Virus record (IMG/VR): IMGVR_UViG_3300010885_012601
Location: 1 to 50,511 of that record
Source of the DNA: a virus
Direction: 5' to 3' (one strand)
DNA length: 50,511 nt
In this document: positions 24,167 through 50,511 of the stretch, piece after piece
How positions within the stretch are numbered: position 1 is the stretch's first letter
How the letters are laid out: every line of letters starts with the position of its first letter
Program-made: the position numbers and the translations under genes
Notes under the pieces: generated by a model
What the model was told of the DNA's origin: nothing
Databases searched by the model: none
Seen by the model: only the letters and a program-made list of their open reading frames with translations

Positions 24167-25201
24167 ATGCGTAAGATGGCAACCATTAGAAAGATTGATG
24201 CACTGCGACCCATTGAAGGTGCAGATACAATTGAGTGCGCTATTGTAGGTGGATGGACAGTGGTGGCCAAGAAGGGCGAATACACCGCAGGCGATCTGGC
24301 AGTGTATTGCGAAATTGACAGCTTCATACCTACTGCTATTGCACCGTTCTTGACCAAGGCTGGACAATACCCTAAGACTTTTGAGGGTGTTGAAGGCGAA
24401 CGTCTTCGCACTATGAAGTTGCGCGGCCAACTATCACAGGGACTGCTGTTACCGCTGTCTGTTTTGACCATGGTAGACTCGTTGTTATTTGAAGGACTTG
24501 ATGTATCAATTCCACTTGGTATTATCAAGTATGAAGCACCCGTCCCGGCACAATTGGCTGGCGAAGTGCGAGGTATGTTTCCTTCATTCATGCCAAAGAC
24601 TGACCAAGAGCGTATTCAGAATCTAAGTGCAGAATTTGCTCAATGGCAAACCAACAAGCTAACTTGGGAAGTTACCGAAAAGCTTGATGGTTCGTCAATG
24701 ACGGTTTATGTTAATGGCGATGACCATGGAGTATGTAGCCGCAATCTAAATCTAAAAGATACAGAAGGTAATTCACTTTGGAAGGTGGCTCATCGAGATC
24801 AAATTATTTCTGCTATCTTTGAAAGCGGTCGTAATCTTGCAGTACAAGGGGAGATCGTAGGAGAAGGTATCCAAGGTAATGCATACAAGATTAAAGGTCA
24901 AAGTTTTTATGTTTTTGACATTTATGACATTGATGCAGGCCGCTACCTTAATCCAGTTGAGCGCAAGGAGTTTTGTGACCTGTATGGCATAATGCATGTA
25001 CCAGTTCTTGCATACAAGGCAGAATTATATGACACCTTGGGTATTGCTACAATTGAACAAGTCTTAAAGTTTGCTGAAGCAAAATCAGTAATGGGAGACA
25101 TTACTGGTCCAGAACGTGAAGGTCTTGTGTTCAAGTGTCACGAACGTGAAGTATCGTTTAAGGCCATTAGCAATAAGTTTTTGCTAAAGACCAAGGACTA
25201 A
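24167..25201 (+). CDS. RNA ligase, DRB0094/Rnl5-type
   Basis: A 344-residue ATP-dependent RNA ligase of the Deinococcus DRB0094 type. An N-terminal OB-like domain comes first (MATIRKIDALRPIEGADTIE, then KKGEYTAGDLAVYCEIDSF), which is the mark of this family. The nucleotidyltransferase domain has motif I EKLDGSS (K172 takes AMP), VQGEIVGEGIQGN, SFYVFDIYDID, motif IV EGLVFKC and motif V SFKAISNKFLLK. The family seals 3'-OH/5'-PO4 nicks, preferring RNA at the 3' side. The ribosome site AAGGAG is strong. A second, unrelated RNA ligase of Rnl1 type is encoded at 49385. Confidence 0.92.
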   Translation: MRKMATIRKIDALRPIEGADTIECAIVGGWTVVAKKGEYTAGDLAVYCEIDSFIPTAIAPFLTKAGQYPKTFEGVEGERLRTMKLRGQLSQGLLLPLSVLTMVDSLLFEGLDVSIPLGIIKYEAPVPAQLAGEVRGMFPSFMPKTDQERIQNLSAEFAQWQTNKLTWEVTEKLDGSSMTVYVNGDDHGVCSRNLNLKDTEGNSLWKVAHRDQIISAIFESGRNLAVQGEIVGEGIQGNAYKIKGQSFYVFDIYDIDAGRYLNPVERKEFCDLYGIMHVPVLAYKAELYDTLGIATIEQVLKFAEAKSVMGDITGPEREGLVFKCHEREVSFKAISNKFLLKTKD

Positions 25202-34570: not shown

Positions 34571-35772
34571 AAATTAAAGAACTACAAAAAGTAAGCCTAG
34601 AAGAAGGGTTCATTGACAATTTAATTGCCAAAGTCAAAAACATGGCTGGCGAAGATGGTCCAACTGGTGTAGTTAGGGCATTAATGGGTAACAACGCCGC
34701 TTTGAATAAATTTGCAGATACCATTGCAAATACAGCTACTCCTAAAATTACTCAGAGACTTGGTAATCAACTTAATGCTATAAAAAATGCCTCAACTCCA
34801 GTTCCATTGAGTATGATTTACAAGCAAGTAATGCAGGTAGGTATACAGCTTGCGGCCAAAGACAACAATGAAGTAACTGCAACTGAAATACAAGGCACTA
34901 TTAGAGCAAATAAAGATGCTGTATTAAAAATGTTGCTTAATGGCTCGGTTGCAGACGATAATAGAGTTCGAGATATATTCCAAGCTATCCTGACTAACTC
35001 TGCTACAATTGATGGCGACTTTGATGTTACTATTAAAACAGTCAGTTTAATTGTTGCTGGTACTATTATTTTTATTCAAACAGAAAAAGAAGATTCAGAT
35101 TCTGAAACATCATTGGATGCTGGGTTAAAAACTAAATTTGAGCAAGAAGGCGAGCAGTTTAATAAAGAAGTACTAGATCCAACTACTGGTATCTTTAAAA
35201 CATTGAACCCAAATGAAAAATTTAAAGACAATATGGAAACTGTGATAGTTCAGCTGGTCAAGACAATTCAAGACAAATACTTGCCAATGCCAACTGATAA
35301 GTTAACATCATTGACAACAGCCGTCCCGCCATTGTTTAGTCCAGTGCAATTAAAGACACTGATTGCATCACATGACAATGCCTTGGATGCAACTGCAATT
35401 GCAACAGCACAAGATAAAATTACAGCATTGCTACAGGCTCAGTTTACTACATGGCTAGCACTGGCAGCTAAAGAATCAACAAATGGGCGTAAAGCAGACC
35501 ATTCTTTTGATCTTTATAGAGAATGGGCAAAGAGTGCATTAGGCCTTATTGATAATATGAATATCAGCGGTACACAGTCATCGGCACCAGGAACAAAGCC
35601 AAGTGATCCAGCAGTTGAAGATGCCTTTGAAAAAGCACACGACGCAGGAGAAGCCGCTCGCCGACGAGTAGTTCCAAACACAGGTGAGAGCAACGAGGAC
35701 TTTATCAACAGAGCCAATGCTGAATATGAACAGGCAAGAGTTGATTATCTAAAGGCGCACACACCACCATGA
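34567..35772 (+). CDS. Hypothetical late protein, 401 aa
   Basis: GTG start overlapping the previous stop (GTGA) with AAGG upstream. The protein is Ala/Thr/Asp-rich and largely helical, with one hydrophobic stretch (VSLIVAGTIIFIQT, about residues 158-171) that may be a buried or membrane helix, and a charged C-terminal part (EAARRRVVPN; EYEQARVDYLKAH). No family is recognised. It ends on the ATGA of the next gene. In a late operon of unknown proteins a virion or internal head role is possible. Confidence 0.65.
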   Translation: MKIKELQKVSLEEGFIDNLIAKVKNMAGEDGPTGVVRALMGNNAALNKFADTIANTATPKITQRLGNQLNAIKNASTPVPLSMIYKQVMQVGIQLAAKDNNEVTATEIQGTIRANKDAVLKMLLNGSVADDNRVRDIFQAILTNSATIDGDFDVTIKTVSLIVAGTIIFIQTEKEDSDSETSLDAGLKTKFEQEGEQFNKEVLDPTTGIFKTLNPNEKFKDNMETVIVQLVKTIQDKYLPMPTDKLTSLTTAVPPLFSPVQLKTLIASHDNALDATAIATAQDKITALLQAQFTTWLALAAKESTNGRKADHSFDLYREWAKSALGLIDNMNISGTQSSAPGTKPSDPAVEDAFEKAHDAGEAARRRVVPNTGESNEDFINRANAEYEQARVDYLKAHTPP

Positions 35773-36953
35773 AGATTTTTGAAATAGCAACACCTAAGAA
35801 AACAATGGTAGTTGAGGCCAAGTCTCGCATTGACCATCCTGAAGATATTATGTTTGATGAAAATGGTCTGGCTGGGGCACAACGTGCGCTTTCTGCAATT
35901 GTACATTCTGCAACTGATCATGCAGGTACAACTACAATAAAATGGGACGGAAGTCCGGCAGTGATATTTGGTTGGGTTGATAAACAGAATTTCATTGTTA
36001 CAGATAAAGCAGGTATAGGGGCCAAAAAGTATAATGGGCGCCCAACCAATGCTGAGGAAGTTACAGCAATGATCTTTAATAGAAAACCTGACCAACCAGG
36101 GCGTGATGTATATGCACAGCGATTTGGGCAAGTTTATGATTTATTAAAGCGAGCAACACCAAATAGTTTAGTTGGCCAGATGATCCAAGGTGATATGTTA
36201 TGGATGGATAATTCAGATATTTCAACCACTAATGATGTTGTTAATTTTAAAGCGAACAAAATTCCATACAGCGTTGACAGCGGCATTGACCTTGGCAAGA
36301 AGATTGCCAGAAGTAAAGCAGGAATTGTTGTACATAGTGTGTTTCCCACGGTTGACGAAGCAGCCAGTGCAGAAGGAGAACCAGTACCTACAACACCAGT
36401 TCAATTAGGTCTTAAAGATGTACCTGGCCTTGTAGTTGTAGGACCAGAAACAAAAATTGCCAGCGATGTGAAAATTAAATTACCCAAGGCTGAGATAGAA
36501 AAAGTCAAGGCTTTAATTTCAAGCCCTGCGGCACAACGTATCAATGACATGCTAGATCCGTTTACAATTGGAAATTTAAAAATCTCCAATTTTCCAGATA
36601 TTTTTAAAAGTTTCATTAATTACAAGGCCGGACAAGGTCAAGAAATTACAAACGGTAATGCCATTGCAAATGAATTCATTAATTGGGTAAAAGGCCCAAG
36701 CGGCTTAACAGCAAACAAACAAGAAAATGTGTTAAAACATATTAATGAGTTCAACGATGCATTCCACACAGCCTGGGACATTGTTGCAGGGATTACAATA
36801 GTTAAACATAAAATTAAAGACCAATTGGATAAGCTATCAGGCCAAAGTCAAGATTCAATTCGAACAGCACAAGGCCACGAGGGGTTTGTATCTGCTACAC
36901 CACACGGTAAAATTAAATATGTTAACCGTCCAGTGTTCATGAAAAAAGGTTAA
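35769..36953 (+). CDS. Nucleotidyltransferase/ligase-like protein (KWDG motif), 394 aa
   Basis: A 394-residue protein with several marks of the covalent nucleotidyltransferase (ligase/capping) superfamily in the right order: IKWDGSPAVIFG (K58-x-D60-G61, motif I), QGDMLW (~141-145, motif III-like), GIVVHSVF (~185-192, motif IIIa-like), HEGFVSA (E371-G372, motif IV) and KIKYVNR (K381/K383, motif V). An insertion of about 170 residues separates IIIa and IV. I recall such proteins as unnamed conserved genes in marine T4-like phages. It may adenylate RNA, DNA or protein. The late operon is an unusual place for a ligase. ATGA overlap with the preceding gene. Confidence 0.6.
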   Translation: MKIFEIATPKKTMVVEAKSRIDHPEDIMFDENGLAGAQRALSAIVHSATDHAGTTTIKWDGSPAVIFGWVDKQNFIVTDKAGIGAKKYNGRPTNAEEVTAMIFNRKPDQPGRDVYAQRFGQVYDLLKRATPNSLVGQMIQGDMLWMDNSDISTTNDVVNFKANKIPYSVDSGIDLGKKIARSKAGIVVHSVFPTVDEAASAEGEPVPTTPVQLGLKDVPGLVVVGPETKIASDVKIKLPKAEIEKVKALISSPAAQRINDMLDPFTIGNLKISNFPDIFKSFINYKAGQGQEITNGNAIANEFINWVKGPSGLTANKQENVLKHINEFNDAFHTAWDIVAGITIVKHKIKDQLDKLSGQSQDSIRTAQGHEGFVSATPHGKIKYVNRPVFMKKG

Positions 36954-46122: not shown

Positions 46123-48033
46123 ATGGCAGACATTCCAATTATTCCAGGCATTAGTGTTGCAACTAAAGGCATCTTAAACAAACCCTTAAAAGATATTATC
46201 TGTGCGCTATTATTTGGTGGCCTTGACAATATGCTTAAGGGTCCTTTGCTTTGCGTTAATGCAGATCTTGATAAGTTACTTACTGACAATTTTCCTGGTG
46301 TACCCAGTATTGCAGATTTAAAAAATGAACTAAAAGATCTTAAAGATCAGATAACAGCATTTGAACAACATTCTGGTATCAAAGATATGTTAGGACGAGT
46401 TAATGGAGCAATTGCTGAAGTACAAAGTTTGTTAGCATTGGATGGTATGTGTAAAATTCCATTAAAGGCTCCATTGATTCCTGATATTATGAAACAGATA
46501 ATTGATGCAGAATTTGCAAATGCCAATGCTATTTTGAATGACCTGGGTAGATTAACTAAGCCGCAATTGTGTTTGAACGGAGACGGCGGCATCGGTACAG
46601 GATCTTACAATCCTGAAAGTATTTTGGGACAACTCCAAGGTCATATCAAGAGGGGTGCAGATATTCCTGGACAGCAATTAGATATCTTAAAGAATAGATT
46701 ATCTGGTGTTAGTAAGGCATTGAAAGCATCTATTAACAGAGAATTATTTCCTGACTTTAGGCACAAACATAATTTATTAACAGGGGCACCTTATGCAGGA
46801 GAGGCAGCAGTGGTAACATTAGCGGCAGCACCTGCACTTGCTAATCAATGGAATCCTCCATATCCACCAGGTACCGCACCAAACTTTAAAGACACAATGA
46901 ATACAGCACAAAGTCTTGTTGCCAATGTTAAACAAACAGGAAGTTATCCTGCAGATGTCAATGGCATCAGGAGTATGAACATTTGGCCTGGATTATTAGG
47001 TCCTGGCTTGTATGGATTGGCTGTTAATGCCCTTACACCACAAGACCCTTTATTTGCACAACAAGAGCCAGTATATGACTATTGCGGTAAGCTGGTCGGA
47101 TACACTTCTACAATTATAACAGGCAGTGCCGACGATGTCGGCGGAAATCCATTGGTAGATGTTGATCCTAATCCTCCTAAAACTACATTTGATTTAATTT
47201 GGATTGCTGAACGCAAGTGCTGGGCAGTCACTGGTGTACAAAGCGAACAGGTTATCAATGGCAGAAAAGATATGTACCTTGATGCAAATCCTACAATAGA
47301 ACTGCACCGCAGTTATAATCATATTTTAAGTATTCCTTCTATTGATTCAATGGGCAATGACTTGGCCCCAGAATTTTACATTTATAAAGTCAAAGAAGAC
47401 TTGACACCGGATGTAGGAAACAGATTCAATTTAGGTCTAAGTAGACTAGAGACTTATGAATTATTAGAAGATGCAAATGGTCTTGACGGTGATGCAGGTA
47501 TACAAAGAAGAACCAGTTTTCCAACAGGTACAACAATGTATTTTGCTGCCGGTAAACAAATATATTCAAGTCCCACTGAACCTGCTTTCCCTAATGCTGA
47601 TGTATGGTGGTATAATACTAATACAGCAGAAATAAAAAAATATATTCCAGGCTCCGATACATCTGGTGGCGGGGGCGGGGGTGGTGGAGGTGGAGGTGGA
47701 GGTGGAGGTGGCGGCGGAAGCCACGATGTTTGGTATTTTAATGGAACAGATTGTATTTTTTCACCGGGCGGATTTGTACCCGGTCCAGTAGAAACATACG
47801 CTACGCAAGAAGCCTGCCTGGCAGCCAATCCACCGTTTGTTGCTCAACTTGCAGTAGAAACTGAACCAATGTTATTATCAGAAACTTTAGCAACAGGATG
47901 GGTTGCTATAACTGAGCAAGATCAAATTGATAACTGGATTGGGTCTACTTCAATCTATAATGCGTCTAACACAAACTATCTATGCTATAGCAATCAAGAT
48001 GGTTCTGTGTTTGGACTAATCAAGTTAGTATAA
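46123..48033 (+). CDS. Baseplate/virion structural protein with poly-glycine linker, 636 aa
   Basis: A large late protein. The N-terminal ~230 residues are helical (LKNELKDLKDQITAFEQHSG, in parts DLKNELKDLKDQITAFEQ) and Leu/Ile-rich. The middle is beta-rich, with YNHILSIPSIDSMG and PNADVWWYNTNTAEIKKY, which resembles the Trp/Asp module of gp18. Residues 515-532 are 18 consecutive glycines, probably a flexible linker, joining a C-terminal ~100-residue domain (VWYFNGTDCIFSPGGF...) that repeats the same theme. The place after PAAR and a peptidase suggests a baseplate part. Not matched to a T4 gene by me. Confidence 0.7.
   Translation: MADIPIIPGISVATKGILNKPLKDIICALLFGGLDNMLKGPLLCVNADLDKLLTDNFPGVPSIADLKNELKDLKDQITAFEQHSGIKDMLGRVNGAIAEVQSLLALDGMCKIPLKAPLIPDIMKQIIDAEFANANAILNDLGRLTKPQLCLNGDGGIGTGSYNPESILGQLQGHIKRGADIPGQQLDILKNRLSGVSKALKASINRELFPDFRHKHNLLTGAPYAGEAAVVTLAAAPALANQWNPPYPPGTAPNFKDTMNTAQSLVANVKQTGSYPADVNGIRSMNIWPGLLGPGLYGLAVNALTPQDPLFAQQEPVYDYCGKLVGYTSTIITGSADDVGGNPLVDVDPNPPKTTFDLIWIAERKCWAVTGVQSEQVINGRKDMYLDANPTIELHRSYNHILSIPSIDSMGNDLAPEFYIYKVKEDLTPDVGNRFNLGLSRLETYELLEDANGLDGDAGIQRRTSFPTGTTMYFAAGKQIYSSPTEPAFPNADVWWYNTNTAEIKKYIPGSDTSGGGGGGGGGGGGGGGGGGSHDVWYFNGTDCIFSPGGFVPGPVETYATQEACLAANPPFVAQLAVETEPMLLSETLATGWVAITEQDQIDNWIGSTSIYNASNTNYLCYSNQDGSVFGLIKLV
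47665..47718 (+). repeat. Poly-glycine tract with GGTGGA hexanucleotide repeat
   Basis: Fifty-four bases coding for 18 glycines, made of GGN codons with an alternating GGT-GGA core (about five units). Such a tract is prone to slippage, which would change linker length by three bases at a time without breaking the frame. Confidence 0.85.
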
Positions 48034-48364: not shown

Positions 48365-48393
48365 TTGACAATCCGGACTATCGATGCTATACT
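48365..48393 (+). promoter_or_regulatory. Sigma70 promoter, near consensus, for the HD hydrolase operon
   Basis: TTGACA (48365-48370), 17-nt spacer, TATACT (48388-48393). Transcription should start near 48400, which is an ATG in frame with the gene, but GGAGAG lies before the ATG at 48424. Either a leaderless 48400 start or the 48424 start may be used. Confidence 0.85.
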
Positions 48394-48423: not shown

Positions 48424-48930
48424 ATGCATATTGTTGAAAAAGCTAGAATATTTGCCACAGCGGCCCATGCGGCCGTGGCCCAATTACGCAAATATACCAA
48501 CGAGCCTTACATTGTACACCCTGCAGAAGTTGCAGGCATTGTTGACAGTGTCGAAGGAGCAACATTTGAAATGGTTGCTGCCGCATGGTTGCACGATGTT
48601 GTAGAAGACACTGGTGTTACATTAGAAGTCGTTCGTGCTGAATTTGGTGATGAGGTTGCTACCATAGTTGGATGGTTAACGGATGTAAGCCGTCCCGAGC
48701 AAGGCAACCGTGCTATTCGTAAAGCAATTGACCGAGCACACACTGCGTCGGCTCCTGCTGAAGCTCAGACAATTAAATTGGCCGATTTGATATCAAACAC
48801 TCGAAGCATTGTTGAGCATGATGAAAAATTTGCCAAGACATACTTGGAGGAAAAGAGAATGTTGTTGGCAGTTATGACTCGTGGCGATGCTGGACTGATG
48901 GCTATTGCCAAAGCTCAAATTGGAGTTTAA
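48424..48930 (+). CDS. Small alarmone hydrolase-like HD protein (SpoT/MESH1 type)
   Basis: A 168-residue HD-domain protein with the (p)ppGpp hydrolase layout: LRKYTNEPYIVHPAEVA (R22, H32), WLHDVVEDT (H57-D58, E61-D62) and IKLADLISNT (D121). These are the Mn2+-binding HD, ED and final Asp of SpoT and MESH1-like enzymes; length fits stand-alone hydrolases. No synthetase or regulatory domain is present. It may degrade host ppGpp and lift the stringent response during infection, or act on NADPH or other nucleotides as MESH1 does. ATG 48424 follows GGAGAG; in-frame ATG 48400 would add 8 residues. Confidence 0.85.
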   Translation: MHIVEKARIFATAAHAAVAQLRKYTNEPYIVHPAEVAGIVDSVEGATFEMVAAAWLHDVVEDTGVTLEVVRAEFGDEVATIVGWLTDVSRPEQGNRAIRKAIDRAHTASAPAEAQTIKLADLISNTRSIVEHDEKFAKTYLEEKRMLLAVMTRGDAGLMAIAKAQIGV

Positions 48931-49392
48931 ATGAGTACGTGTTATCAGTTGATTGGTGTCCCGGGTAGTGGAAAATCTACCTGGGCCATTAATCAAGATT
49001 GGATAATAGATTGTGTAGTAGTATCCACTGATGAGTTTGTTGAGGACTATGCCAAAGAGTGTGGTTCAACTTATTCTGAAGTTTTTGATGACTACATGCC
49101 TGCCGCAGTTAAATTAATGACCAATAAAGTTATTCATGCTCGTAATGCAGGTAAGGATATTGTCTGGGACCAAACCAGTACAACAATTAAAAGCCGCGCT
49201 CGCAAGTTTAATATGTTACGAGATTATGAGCATATTGCTGTGGTTTTTCGAACACCACCAGAAGATGAATTGACTCGCCGCTTGGCCAGTCGTCCAGGTA
49301 AGAACATTCCGGAACATGTTATGCGTAGCATGATCGCAGGATGGGACGAGCCAATCAAAGAAGAAGGCTTTAAGGAAATTTGGTATGTTTAA
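48931..49392 (+). CDS. Polynucleotide kinase-like P-loop kinase (T4 Pnk N-domain type)
   Basis: A 153-residue P-loop kinase. GVPGSGKST (9-17) is Walker A, STDEFVEDYA contains the DxF-type acceptor-binding site, DIVWDQTSTTIKSRARKF gives the WD-T and R-x-R-x motif seen in T4 Pnk, and ELTRRLASRPGKNIPEHV is the lid with arginines. T4 Pnk also has a C-terminal 3'-phosphatase domain, which is missing here. The gene is coupled upstream (TAAATG) and downstream with an Rnl1-type ligase, so it should phosphorylate 5'-OH ends of cleaved tRNA for repair. Confidence 0.85.
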   Translation: MSTCYQLIGVPGSGKSTWAINQDWIIDCVVVSTDEFVEDYAKECGSTYSEVFDDYMPAAVKLMTNKVIHARNAGKDIVWDQTSTTIKSRARKFNMLRDYEHIAVVFRTPPEDELTRRLASRPGKNIPEHVMRSMIAGWDEPIKEEGFKEIWYV

Positions 49393-50290
49393 GGATGAAT
49401 TAAAAAAGTTTGTACTAGATAATCCACAGTTGGTGAACATGCGTTCTGCTGGCGAAGGTATCTACGTGCTCAAGTATTCCAAGCGTGTGTTCTACGACAA
49501 CTTATGGAATGACTTTTTAGAAGAATGCCGCGGTACCATTGTGGACTCAGAATTCAATGTGGTATCACGTCCATTTACAAAGATCTATAACTACGGCGTA
49601 GAATCCAAGGCTCCTGTGCTTGCTGACAATGTAAAGGTGACTGCGTACCGCAAGGCCAATGGCTTCATGGCGGCAATAACTTGGTACAATAACGATATCC
49701 TAGTATCCACTACTGGAAGCACTGCCAACGACTATGTTGACTATGCTAAGGAAATGATGCTGAAGCACGCCTGCTGGGCTGACTGGCAAATGGCTGTGCT
49801 GGGTGCTCGTGGTTATACTTTGATGTTTGAATGTGTGCATCCAAGCGACCCGCACATTGTTGTAGAAACTGCTGGAATGTATTTTCTTGGATGGCGTGAA
49901 AACTCATGGGACTCAAAAGTTAACGGCTTTGGATCTGAACTAGTGTGGAAGATATTTGCCGAAGATACCCTAAAGTGTCACGCTGTAGAATCTTATCACA
50001 TGACTGTGGATGAATTGGTAGCAGAGTCTAAAAAGGTTCGGCACGAAGGTTTTGTATTCTACACAGAAGATGGTGTATCTGCAAAGATCAAAAGTCCCTA
50101 CTACCTCACTGCCAAGTGGGTGGCACGTAACCCACGCACTGACAAGCTGTTGACCAAAGAGTTTCGGGAACTGATTGACGAAGAGTACTATCCGTTGTTG
50201 GATCACATACGTGCTAATATCGTTGAATACACTGAATTAGATGAACAAGCACGTCTGGCCTGGGTGCGTAACTATTTGGAGACAACATGA
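49385..50290 (+). CDS. RNA ligase, T4 Rnl1-type
   Basis: A 301-residue RNA ligase of the T4 Rnl1 type. ECRGTIVDSEFNVVSRPFTKIYNYG (in parts ECRGTIVD, VVSRPFTKIYNYG) is the N-terminal signature, then motif I YRKANGF (K90-A-N-G), motif III LMFECVHP, motif IV HEGFVFYTEDG and motif V AKIKSPYYLTAKW. T4 Rnl1 is 374 residues with a C-terminal tRNA-binding domain; here about 70 residues are missing, so the tRNA part is reduced. Motif I reads KxNG, not the usual KxDG. With the kinase upstream it forms a Pnk-Rnl1 tRNA repair pair. Confidence 0.92.
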   Translation: MFKDELKKFVLDNPQLVNMRSAGEGIYVLKYSKRVFYDNLWNDFLEECRGTIVDSEFNVVSRPFTKIYNYGVESKAPVLADNVKVTAYRKANGFMAAITWYNNDILVSTTGSTANDYVDYAKEMMLKHACWADWQMAVLGARGYTLMFECVHPSDPHIVVETAGMYFLGWRENSWDSKVNGFGSELVWKIFAEDTLKCHAVESYHMTVDELVAESKKVRHEGFVFYTEDGVSAKIKSPYYLTAKWVARNPRTDKLLTKEFRELIDEEYYPLLDHIRANIVEYTELDEQARLAWVRNYLETT

Positions 50291-50502
50291 TTGATGAAAG
50301 TCATCTGCCTGTAAGCGAACAAAGTCTGGTCTTTCGTTTGAGAAAACGGGCAGAGATTAGGCGACAGATTAAAGATCGTAAAAGTGTGCAAGAAGGTATT
50401 GCTGATAGGATAGCAGATTTACTTGAAGAAGCCGCAAATGAAATTGAACAATTAAGAAAGAAATTAAATGAAAACTTGGATAACAGCGGACATACATTTT
50501 AG
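50287..50502 (+). CDS. Small helical protein, 71 aa
   Basis: Begins in the ligase stop (ATGA) and overlaps the next gene start by 35 nt. A charged, helical protein (LRKRAEIRRQIKDRKSVQEG, in parts FRLRKRAEIRRQIKD; LLEEAANEIEQLRKKLNEN) that may form a coiled coil. No family recognised. It belongs to the RNA-repair operon by overlap on both sides. Confidence 0.6.
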   Translation: MIDESHLPVSEQSLVFRLRKRAEIRRQIKDRKSVQEGIADRIADLLEEAANEIEQLRKKLNENLDNSGHTF

Positions 50503-50511
50503 TCACAAAAA
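50468..50511 (+). CDS. Start of a metallophosphoesterase gene (3' partial)
   Basis: The frame from ATG 50468 reads MKTWITADIHFSHK, ending at the window edge. D-x-H-x-x-H after a short first strand is the first metal-binding motif of calcineurin-like phosphoesterases, usually in this position. The gene continues beyond the window. In an RNA-repair operon it may be a phosphatase or 2',3'-cyclic phosphodiesterase that replaces the missing Pnk phosphatase domain; that is inference from place. Confidence 0.7.
   Translation, partial: MKTWITADIHFSHK

What the first reader, a model, noticed from the sequence alone, without database searches (positions are those of the whole stretch)
48424..50511. 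Alarmone hydrolase, polynucleotide kinase, Rnl1-type ligase and phosphoesterase in one operon
Four overlapping genes start from a near-consensus early promoter. Pnk and Rnl1 together undo anticodon-nuclease damage in T4; here the Pnk lacks its phosphatase domain and a metallophosphoesterase gene lies just downstream, as if the domains had been split. The first gene is a stand-alone ppGpp-hydrolase-like HD protein. One operon could thus counter both stringent/toxic nucleotide signalling and tRNA-cleaving defences.
Basis: partly seen in the sequence, partly recalled or inferred. Interest (0 to 1): 0.7.

Follow-up and report, generated by a model that had tools for sequence, protein, structure and literature searches.

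The report
Phage tRNA-repair island with alarmone hydrolase
The end of this phage contig carries a compact operon whose enzymes look able to mend host-damaged tRNAs at the broken anticodon loop (kinase, ligase, phosphatase) and, probably, at the poisoned 3' end (small alarmone hydrolase), and the same genes recur together in shuffled order in several groups of phages.

Summary
An 11/12 sigma-70 promoter precedes a small alarmone hydrolase (SAH, 48424-48930), a kinase-only Pnk-like protein (48931-49392), an Rnl1-type RNA ligase (49385-50290), an unknown 71-aa gene (50287-50502) and the first 14 codons of a metallophosphoesterase (MPE, from 50468), cut by the contig end. In 105 non-redundant environmental loci, SAH, kinase, ligase, MPE and a PTP/DSP-like phosphatase recur in 30 gene orders, often near large tRNA arrays. 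Isolated phages ACP17, V45v66, VCM and JSF12 carry SAH, MPE and Rnl1 close together; phiN3 carries SAH, kinase and MPE. I conclude it is an RNA-repair island. The kinase is closest to bacterial Pnkp, not T4 Pnkp, so 'split T4 Pnkp' is not supported. The SAH is 49% identical to PaSpo of phage SSU5, reported to strip the pyrophosphate that toxSAS toxins add to tRNA 3' ends; the most coherent reading is one operon repairing tRNA at anticodon and CCA end. The SAH's substrate is inferred, not shown. RNA repair in jumbo phages, with HD-like and calcineurin-like phosphatases, is already described (Iyer 2021); the SAH as a tRNA-3'-end repair member was not found in the papers searched.

The parts
48365..48393 (+). 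sigma-70-like promoter TTGACA-17-TATACT, extended -10 (TG)
   Evidence: best site in 6 kb, 11/12; 35% (19/55) of homologous SAH genes have such a site within 90 bp upstream against 13% (197/1545) of all genes
48424..48930 (+). small alarmone hydrolase (SAH), 168 aa, HD_4 domain only, no synthetase domain
   Evidence: catalytic set R, H, HD, ED, D, N conserved in the family of 56; 49% identity to PaSpo of phage SSU5
48931..49392 (+). kinase-only Pnk-like P-loop kinase, 153 aa
49385..50290 (+). Rnl1-type ATP-dependent RNA ligase, 301 aa, motif I K90-A-N-G93
50287..50502 (+). conserved 71-aa protein of unknown function
   Evidence: no convincing family match
50468..50511 (+). first 14 codons of a calcineurin-like metallophosphoesterase gene cut by the contig end
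   Evidence: complete homologues in 81 loci match phrog_547 phosphoesterase, E 6.9e-51

Best explanation
The genes are the left part of a tRNA-repair island of a large T4-related phage. When host defences cut tRNA anticodon loops, the MPE (or another phosphatase of the island) clears the 2',3'-cyclic or 3'-phosphate end, the kinase phosphorylates the 5'-OH end, and the Rnl1-type ligase seals the break. When toxSAS-type defences block tRNA by adding pyrophosphate to the 3'-CCA end, the SAH removes it. Shown by computation: gene identities, conserved active-site residues in SAH and ligase, recurrent clustering in several phage groups, neighbouring tRNA arrays. Inferred: all substrates, that the MPE is the 3'-end phosphatase, that the SAH acts on tRNA rather than on free (p)ppGpp or (p)ppApp, and early expression.
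For: Ligase: T4 Rnl1 is the best fold match (E 9.9e-14), followed by fungal tRNA ligases. Kinase: bacterial polynucleotide kinase is the best fold match and the best profile match (Pnkp1 2.3e-10). [quoted passage not shown] Linkage: of 27 non-redundant SAH loci with full flanks, 23 have the kinase, 21 the MPE, 17 the DSP-like phosphatase and 13 the ligase within 3.5 kb; 30 different gene orders among 84 loci, so proximity persists although order is shuffled. In 10 of 11 records of 100 kb or more with a stand-alone SAH, the MPE lies 0.5-4.7 kb from it; the eleventh record begins 0.4 kb before the SAH. Isolates: VCM has SAH, MPE, a small gene and Rnl1 in 2.2 kb; ACP17 has SAH and MPE overlapping with Rnl1 about 2 kb away; JSF12 and V45v66 have all three within 8 kb; phiN3 has SAH, kinase and MPE within 4 kb. 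Random placement, SAH to MPE: Fisher p 1.4e-4 for six isolates, the unlinked one included. tRNA arrays: 55 of 105 loci hold tRNAs, 313 in 1.05 Mb; most long records have 28-42 tRNAs, several directly beside the module.
Against: SAHs occur in many phages without any of these genes (SSU5, phiKZ and others), and in BcepSaruman SAH, MPE and ligase are far apart, so the SAH can work alone. PaSpo itself is in a phage without the module. The kinase lacks the Arg that in T4 Pnk (R38) and CthPnkp (R41) contacts the acceptor phosphate (V/I37, E/D38 instead), so 5'-OH RNA may not be its substrate. ACP17, V45v66, VCM and JSF12 lack a recognisable relative of this kinase. The environmental loci belong largely to related phages and are not independent. 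The window itself has no tRNA gene.
Confidence: 0.55

Rival explanations
1. RNA-repair module and SAH are functionally separate early genes: kinase, ligase and MPE repair RNA, while the SAH lowers host (p)ppGpp or (p)ppApp to keep metabolism running; they lie together only because both belong to an early host-takeover region.
For: All residues of the RSH hydrolase site are kept; SAHs are common in phages without RNA-repair genes; the phage Adele paper reads its SAH as a (p)ppGpp/(p)ppApp hydrolase (PMC12846349).
Against: The linkage is to specific genes (kinase, MPE, DSP) across shuffled orders and in different phage groups, with SAHs of two clades; a random early-region neighbour would not be expected to track them so closely.
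Confidence: 0.3
2. The HD protein serves as an RNA-end phosphatase in the same repair pathway (removing 3' phosphates after anticodon cleavage), as Iyer et al. 2021 suggested for HD-like domains in some jumbo phages.
For: Iyer et al. [quoted passage not shown] the linkage found here fits.
Against: The MPE, and the DSP-like phosphatase in relatives, already supply phosphatases; the protein keeps the ED pair and motif spacing of pyrophosphohydrolases and is nearest to PaSpo.
Confidence: 0.1
3. Kinase and ligase are not for RNA: they modify DNA ends, another small molecule or tail fibres, and the cluster is a loose accessory region.
For: The kinase acceptor Arg is missing; the PHROG that holds the ligase is named for the T4 tail-fibre attachment activity.
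Against: Ligase fold and motifs are those of Rnl1 and of tRNA ligases, not DNA ligases; tRNA arrays lie alongside; RF-1-domain genes recur nearby.
Confidence: 0.05

Closest known systems
T4 Pnkp-Rnl1 (pseT/rnlA) tRNA repair
   Same: kinase plus Rnl1-type ligase in a T4-related phage; ligase fold nearest T4 Rnl1
   Different: kinase stands alone, is closer to bacterial Pnkp and lacks the fused HAD phosphatase; ligase about 75 aa shorter; SAH and MPE in the same operon
Bacterial Pnkp (Clostridium thermocellum Pnkp, Pnkp1)
   Same: closest solved relatives of the kinase; that enzyme combines kinase, metallophosphoesterase-type phosphatase and ligase in one chain (general knowledge; the PDB molecule name is 'Metallophosphoesterase')
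   Different: separate proteins here; ligase is Rnl1-type; the MPE profile does not find a Pnkp phosphatase domain
PaSpo SAH of Salmonella phage SSU5
   Same: full-length colinear homologue, 49% identity, same C-terminal motif; reported to undo toxSAS tRNA modification (PMC11559606; also used against CapRel, PMC9712102)
   Different: SSU5 lacks ligase, kinase and MPE relatives
RNA repair systems of jumbo phages (Iyer et al. 2021, PMC7824862)
   Same: ligases with Pnk and phosphatases, tRNA arrays, calcineurin-like and HD-like phosphatases already proposed
   Different: that section gives the SAH no role at the tRNA 3' end and does not describe a SAH-MPE-kinase-Rnl1 island in shuffled order

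Membership tests
Small alarmone hydrolase (RSH superfamily) | HD_4 hydrolase domain without a synthetase domain | tested here: met
   168 aa; PF13328 3.7e-16 is the only family above its cut-off
Small alarmone hydrolase (RSH superfamily) | metal ligands H, HD, D and catalytic ED pair, with the conserved Arg and Asn of the RSH hydrolase site | tested here: met
   aligned to Rel sequences of solved structures and conserved in the family
Small alarmone hydrolase (RSH superfamily) | hydrolysis of (p)ppGpp/(p)ppApp or tRNA-CCA-pp | not testable with these tools
   needs enzyme assay; near homologue PaSpo reported active on modified tRNA (PMC11559606)
T4 RNA ligase 1 (Rnl1) | nucleotidyltransferase motifs I (KxxG), III, IV, V and Rnl1 fold | tested here: met
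   K90-x-x-G93, F148-E149, E221-G222, K234 invariant; T4 Rnl1 best fold hit
T4 RNA ligase 1 (Rnl1) | full C-terminal tRNA-specificity domain | tested here: inconclusive
   only about 60 residues follow motif V; helical tail predicted; NCBIfam equivalog TIGR02308 far below cut-off (38.6 against 242 bits)
T4-type Pnkp | P-loop, general-base Asp and lid Arg residues of the kinase | tested here: met
   G14-K15-S16-T17, D34, R117, R121 invariant
T4-type Pnkp | acceptor-phosphate Arg (T4 R38 / CthPnkp R41) | tested here: not met
   V or I at 37 and E or D at 38 in all 16 aligned sequences; register against Pnkp1 and CthPnkp; role of the Arg from general knowledge
T4-type Pnkp | fused C-terminal HAD phosphatase | tested here: not met
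   ORF ends after the kinase domain, 153 aa
Calcineurin-like metallophosphoesterase | DxH, GD, GNHD, H, GHxH metal motifs | tested here: met
   in complete homologues; only DxH lies inside the window
Anticodon-nuclease countermeasure (as T4 against PrrC) | restores plaque formation on a PrrC host | not testable with these tools
   experiment needed

The most novel reading that the evidence does not exclude
A modular phage tRNA-repair island in which one SAH-containing operon reverses both kinds of tRNA-directed immunity, anticodon cleavage (kinase, Rnl1, MPE) and 3'-CCA pyrophosphorylation (SAH), with a PTP/DSP-like phosphatase and a truncated RF1-type GGQ protein as further, so far unassigned, parts. 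In this reading phage 'alarmone hydrolases' in such islands are tRNA-repair enzymes rather than stringent-response modulators.
Probability: 0.4. Interest if true: 0.75.

Novelty: new variant of a known kind. Interest (0 to 1): 0.55.

Why it matters
tRNA is a common target of phage defence (anticodon nucleases, PARIS, retrons, toxSAS/CapRel). A conserved island that pairs cleaved-tRNA repair with a homologue of a phage enzyme reported to reverse tRNA pyrophosphorylation would mean that phages carry a general tRNA-repair kit. It would also give a testable role to the SAH genes found in about 290 records of the phage collection, many now labelled '(p)ppGpp synthetase' or 'phosphohydrolase'.

Tried and rejected
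Start of the SAH at ATG 48400: rejected, it would lie at or before the predicted transcription start; 48424 has GGAGAG upstream. The 71-aa ORF as the phosphoesterase: rejected, no family match, and the MPE start is in another frame. 'T4 Pnkp split in two': rejected on kinase and MPE affinities. MPE as a descendant of the CthPnkp phosphatase domain: not supported, the profile found only aq_1665 above noise. A first coordinate for the MPE start (50475) was wrong and was corrected to 50468. RF-1-domain neighbour as PrfH: it scores better as RF1 (158 bits) than as PrfH (42 bits), so I call it truncated RF1-like. Pfam gave no hit for the ligase and no relevant hit for the MPE; PHROGs and structure were needed. 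A fetched T4 region missed the pnk gene and was not used. The bacterial genome scan with the SAH gave mostly hits at 34-45% identity and was not pursued. The tree of SAHs has long branches; only the separation of JSF12, VCM and phiN3 from the window's group is used, with caution.

Full report
What is there. The window is a 50,511-base virus record from a T4-related phage: its terminase is 53% identical to those of Pseudomonas jumbo phages of the PA5oct type. At its right end, after a promoter TTGACA-17-TATACT with an extended -10, five reading frames follow in one direction: SAH 48424-48930, kinase 48931-49392, ligase 49385-50290, a 71-aa protein 50287-50502, and from 50468 the first 14 codons of a metallophosphoesterase, cut by the contig end. 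SAH and kinase abut; the next junctions overlap by 8, 4 and 35 nt. In relatives 82 of 126 adjacent pairs of module genes overlap or are at most 10 bp apart.

Is it more than chance? Promoter: about 1.3 sites of at least 11/12 are expected per strand of the window, so a single site is weak evidence; its position, the Shine-Dalgarno and the enrichment of such sites before homologous SAH genes (19/55 against 197/1545 of all genes) support it. Gene content: the protein matches are far above chance.

What the proteins are. SAH: HD_4 only, with the residues of the RSH hydrolase site kept in the family. The best characterised near homologue is PaSpo of Salmonella phage SSU5, 49% identity, 135 bits, against 62 bits for the best solved structure. 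PaSpo is reported to counteract FaRel2 by removing the modification from tRNA (PMC11559606) and is described as neutralising other toxSAS (PMC9712102). Kinase: confident model (pLDDT 90.6); best fold matches are bacterial Pnkp kinase domains (E 4.8e-9), with mammalian PNKP, tRNA(Sec) kinase and T4 Pnk behind; profile order is Pnkp1, CthPnkp, then others, T4 Pnk last. The Arg used by T4 (R38) and CthPnkp (R41) for the acceptor is V/I or E/D here, a warning about the substrate. Ligase: pLDDT 89.2; T4 Rnl1 is the best fold match, fungal tRNA ligase next; key residues of motifs I, III, IV and V are invariant; the tail after motif V is short. MPE: complete homologues carry DxH, GD, GNHD, H and GHxH motifs and match phrog_547.

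The neighbourhood across phages. Two scans gave 156 viral loci, 105 after removal of near copies. The commonest families are MPE (81 loci), ligase (80), a PTP/DSP-like phosphatase with HCx5R loop (75; PF00782 6.6e-7 but below its cut-off; alignment), kinase (70), SAH (56) and the 71-aa protein (54); the counts for ligase, kinase, SAH and the 71-aa protein include the window. Less often there are a DUF2828/phrog_850 RNA-binding vWA protein (22) and a truncated RF1-like GGQ protein (19). Twenty-one loci hold SAH, kinase, ligase and MPE together, and 30 orders of SAH, kinase, ligase, MPE and DSP occur among 84 loci with at least three of them. In the five long records that have all four, they sit within 2.6-10.3 kb of 101-252 kb. 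Three of the sixteen long records have no SAH, and two have only a long RSH-like frame, so the SAH is an optional member.

Other phage groups. Among 19 SAH-bearing isolates examined, four have a strong Rnl1 relative, and in all four SAH, MPE and ligase are within 8 kb: ACP17, V45v66, VCM and JSF12. phiN3 has SAH, kinase and MPE within about 4 kb. BcepSaruman has MPE, ligase and SAH unlinked, and thirteen others have none of the partners. The SAHs of JSF12, VCM and phiN3 group apart from the window's group (long branches), so the association may have arisen more than once. A random-placement test for SAH-MPE distance gives p 1.4e-4 for the six isolates; for the environmental records 1.4e-10, but these are not independent.

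tRNA context. 55 of 105 loci carry tRNA genes, 313 in 1.05 Mb; in L079 the SAH-ligase pair lies inside an array of 34 tRNAs. Long records carry mostly 28-42 tRNAs, in several cases ending 1-6 kb from the module (G001, G008, G010, G014, G017), although 16-20 kb away in G013 and G015, two only in G003 and none in G016. The window has none.

How it most likely works. MPE (possibly with the DSP-like enzyme) clears 3' phosphates, the kinase restores the 5' phosphate, Rnl1 seals, and the SAH strips pyrophosphate from the CCA end. The first three follow the T4 and bacterial Pnkp logic (established knowledge; Iyer et al. 2021). The last is inferred from PaSpo and from linkage. The main rival is that the SAH lowers alarmones independently.

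Known or new. RNA-repair sets in jumbo phages, with calcineurin-like and HD-like phosphatases, are described (PMC7824862). A full-text search for 'alarmone hydrolase', 'RNA ligase' and 'phage' returned two papers: the phage Adele genome paper, read only at its SAH passages, which discuss alarmones, and the FaRel2 paper. Only an open-access library was searched, so this is weak evidence of novelty.

Noticed in passing
window 24167-25201 (+): A second RNA ligase, of the DRB0094/Rnl5 type (TIGR02306, E 4.5e-62, above its cut-off), so the phage has at least two RNA ligases.
   Followed up: partly
window 35769-36953 (+): DUF6267 protein (8.1e-32) with a KWDG motif reminiscent of a nucleotidyltransferase/ligase motif I; not tested further.
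   Followed up: no
window 46123-48033 (+): 636-aa protein without family matches, with a run of about 20 glycines.
   Followed up: no
L071:1717-2229 and 74 other loci: PTP/DSP-like phosphatase family (HCx5R), often directly upstream of the kinase; in the isolate phage collection only one relative was found. A candidate further part of the repair island.
   Followed up: partly
L043:2238-2726, L102:7048-7422 and others: Truncated RF1-like GGQ proteins near the module (19 loci), possibly for ribosomes stalled by damaged tRNA.
   Followed up: partly
L046:1835-3253 and 21 other loci: DUF2828/DUF7788 vWA protein, phrog_850 'RNA-binding protein' (1.6e-145), near the module.
   Followed up: partly
L003:2276-2653: ARAGORN calls a tmRNA (tag ANDESYALAA) in a virus contig about 3.3 kb from the ligase.
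   Followed up: no
G007:189564-189935 and G009:253097-253468 (records of L049 and L074): Long RSH-like frames (791 and 853 aa) instead of a small SAH in two large virus records.
   Followed up: no
L160:3340-4519: In phage phiKM1 the closest isolate SAH (58%) follows HicA/HicB-like genes near the integrase, a different, toxin-antitoxin-like context.
   Followed up: no
window 50287-50502 (+): Conserved 71-aa protein of unknown function that travels with the module, often directly after the ligase.
   Followed up: partly
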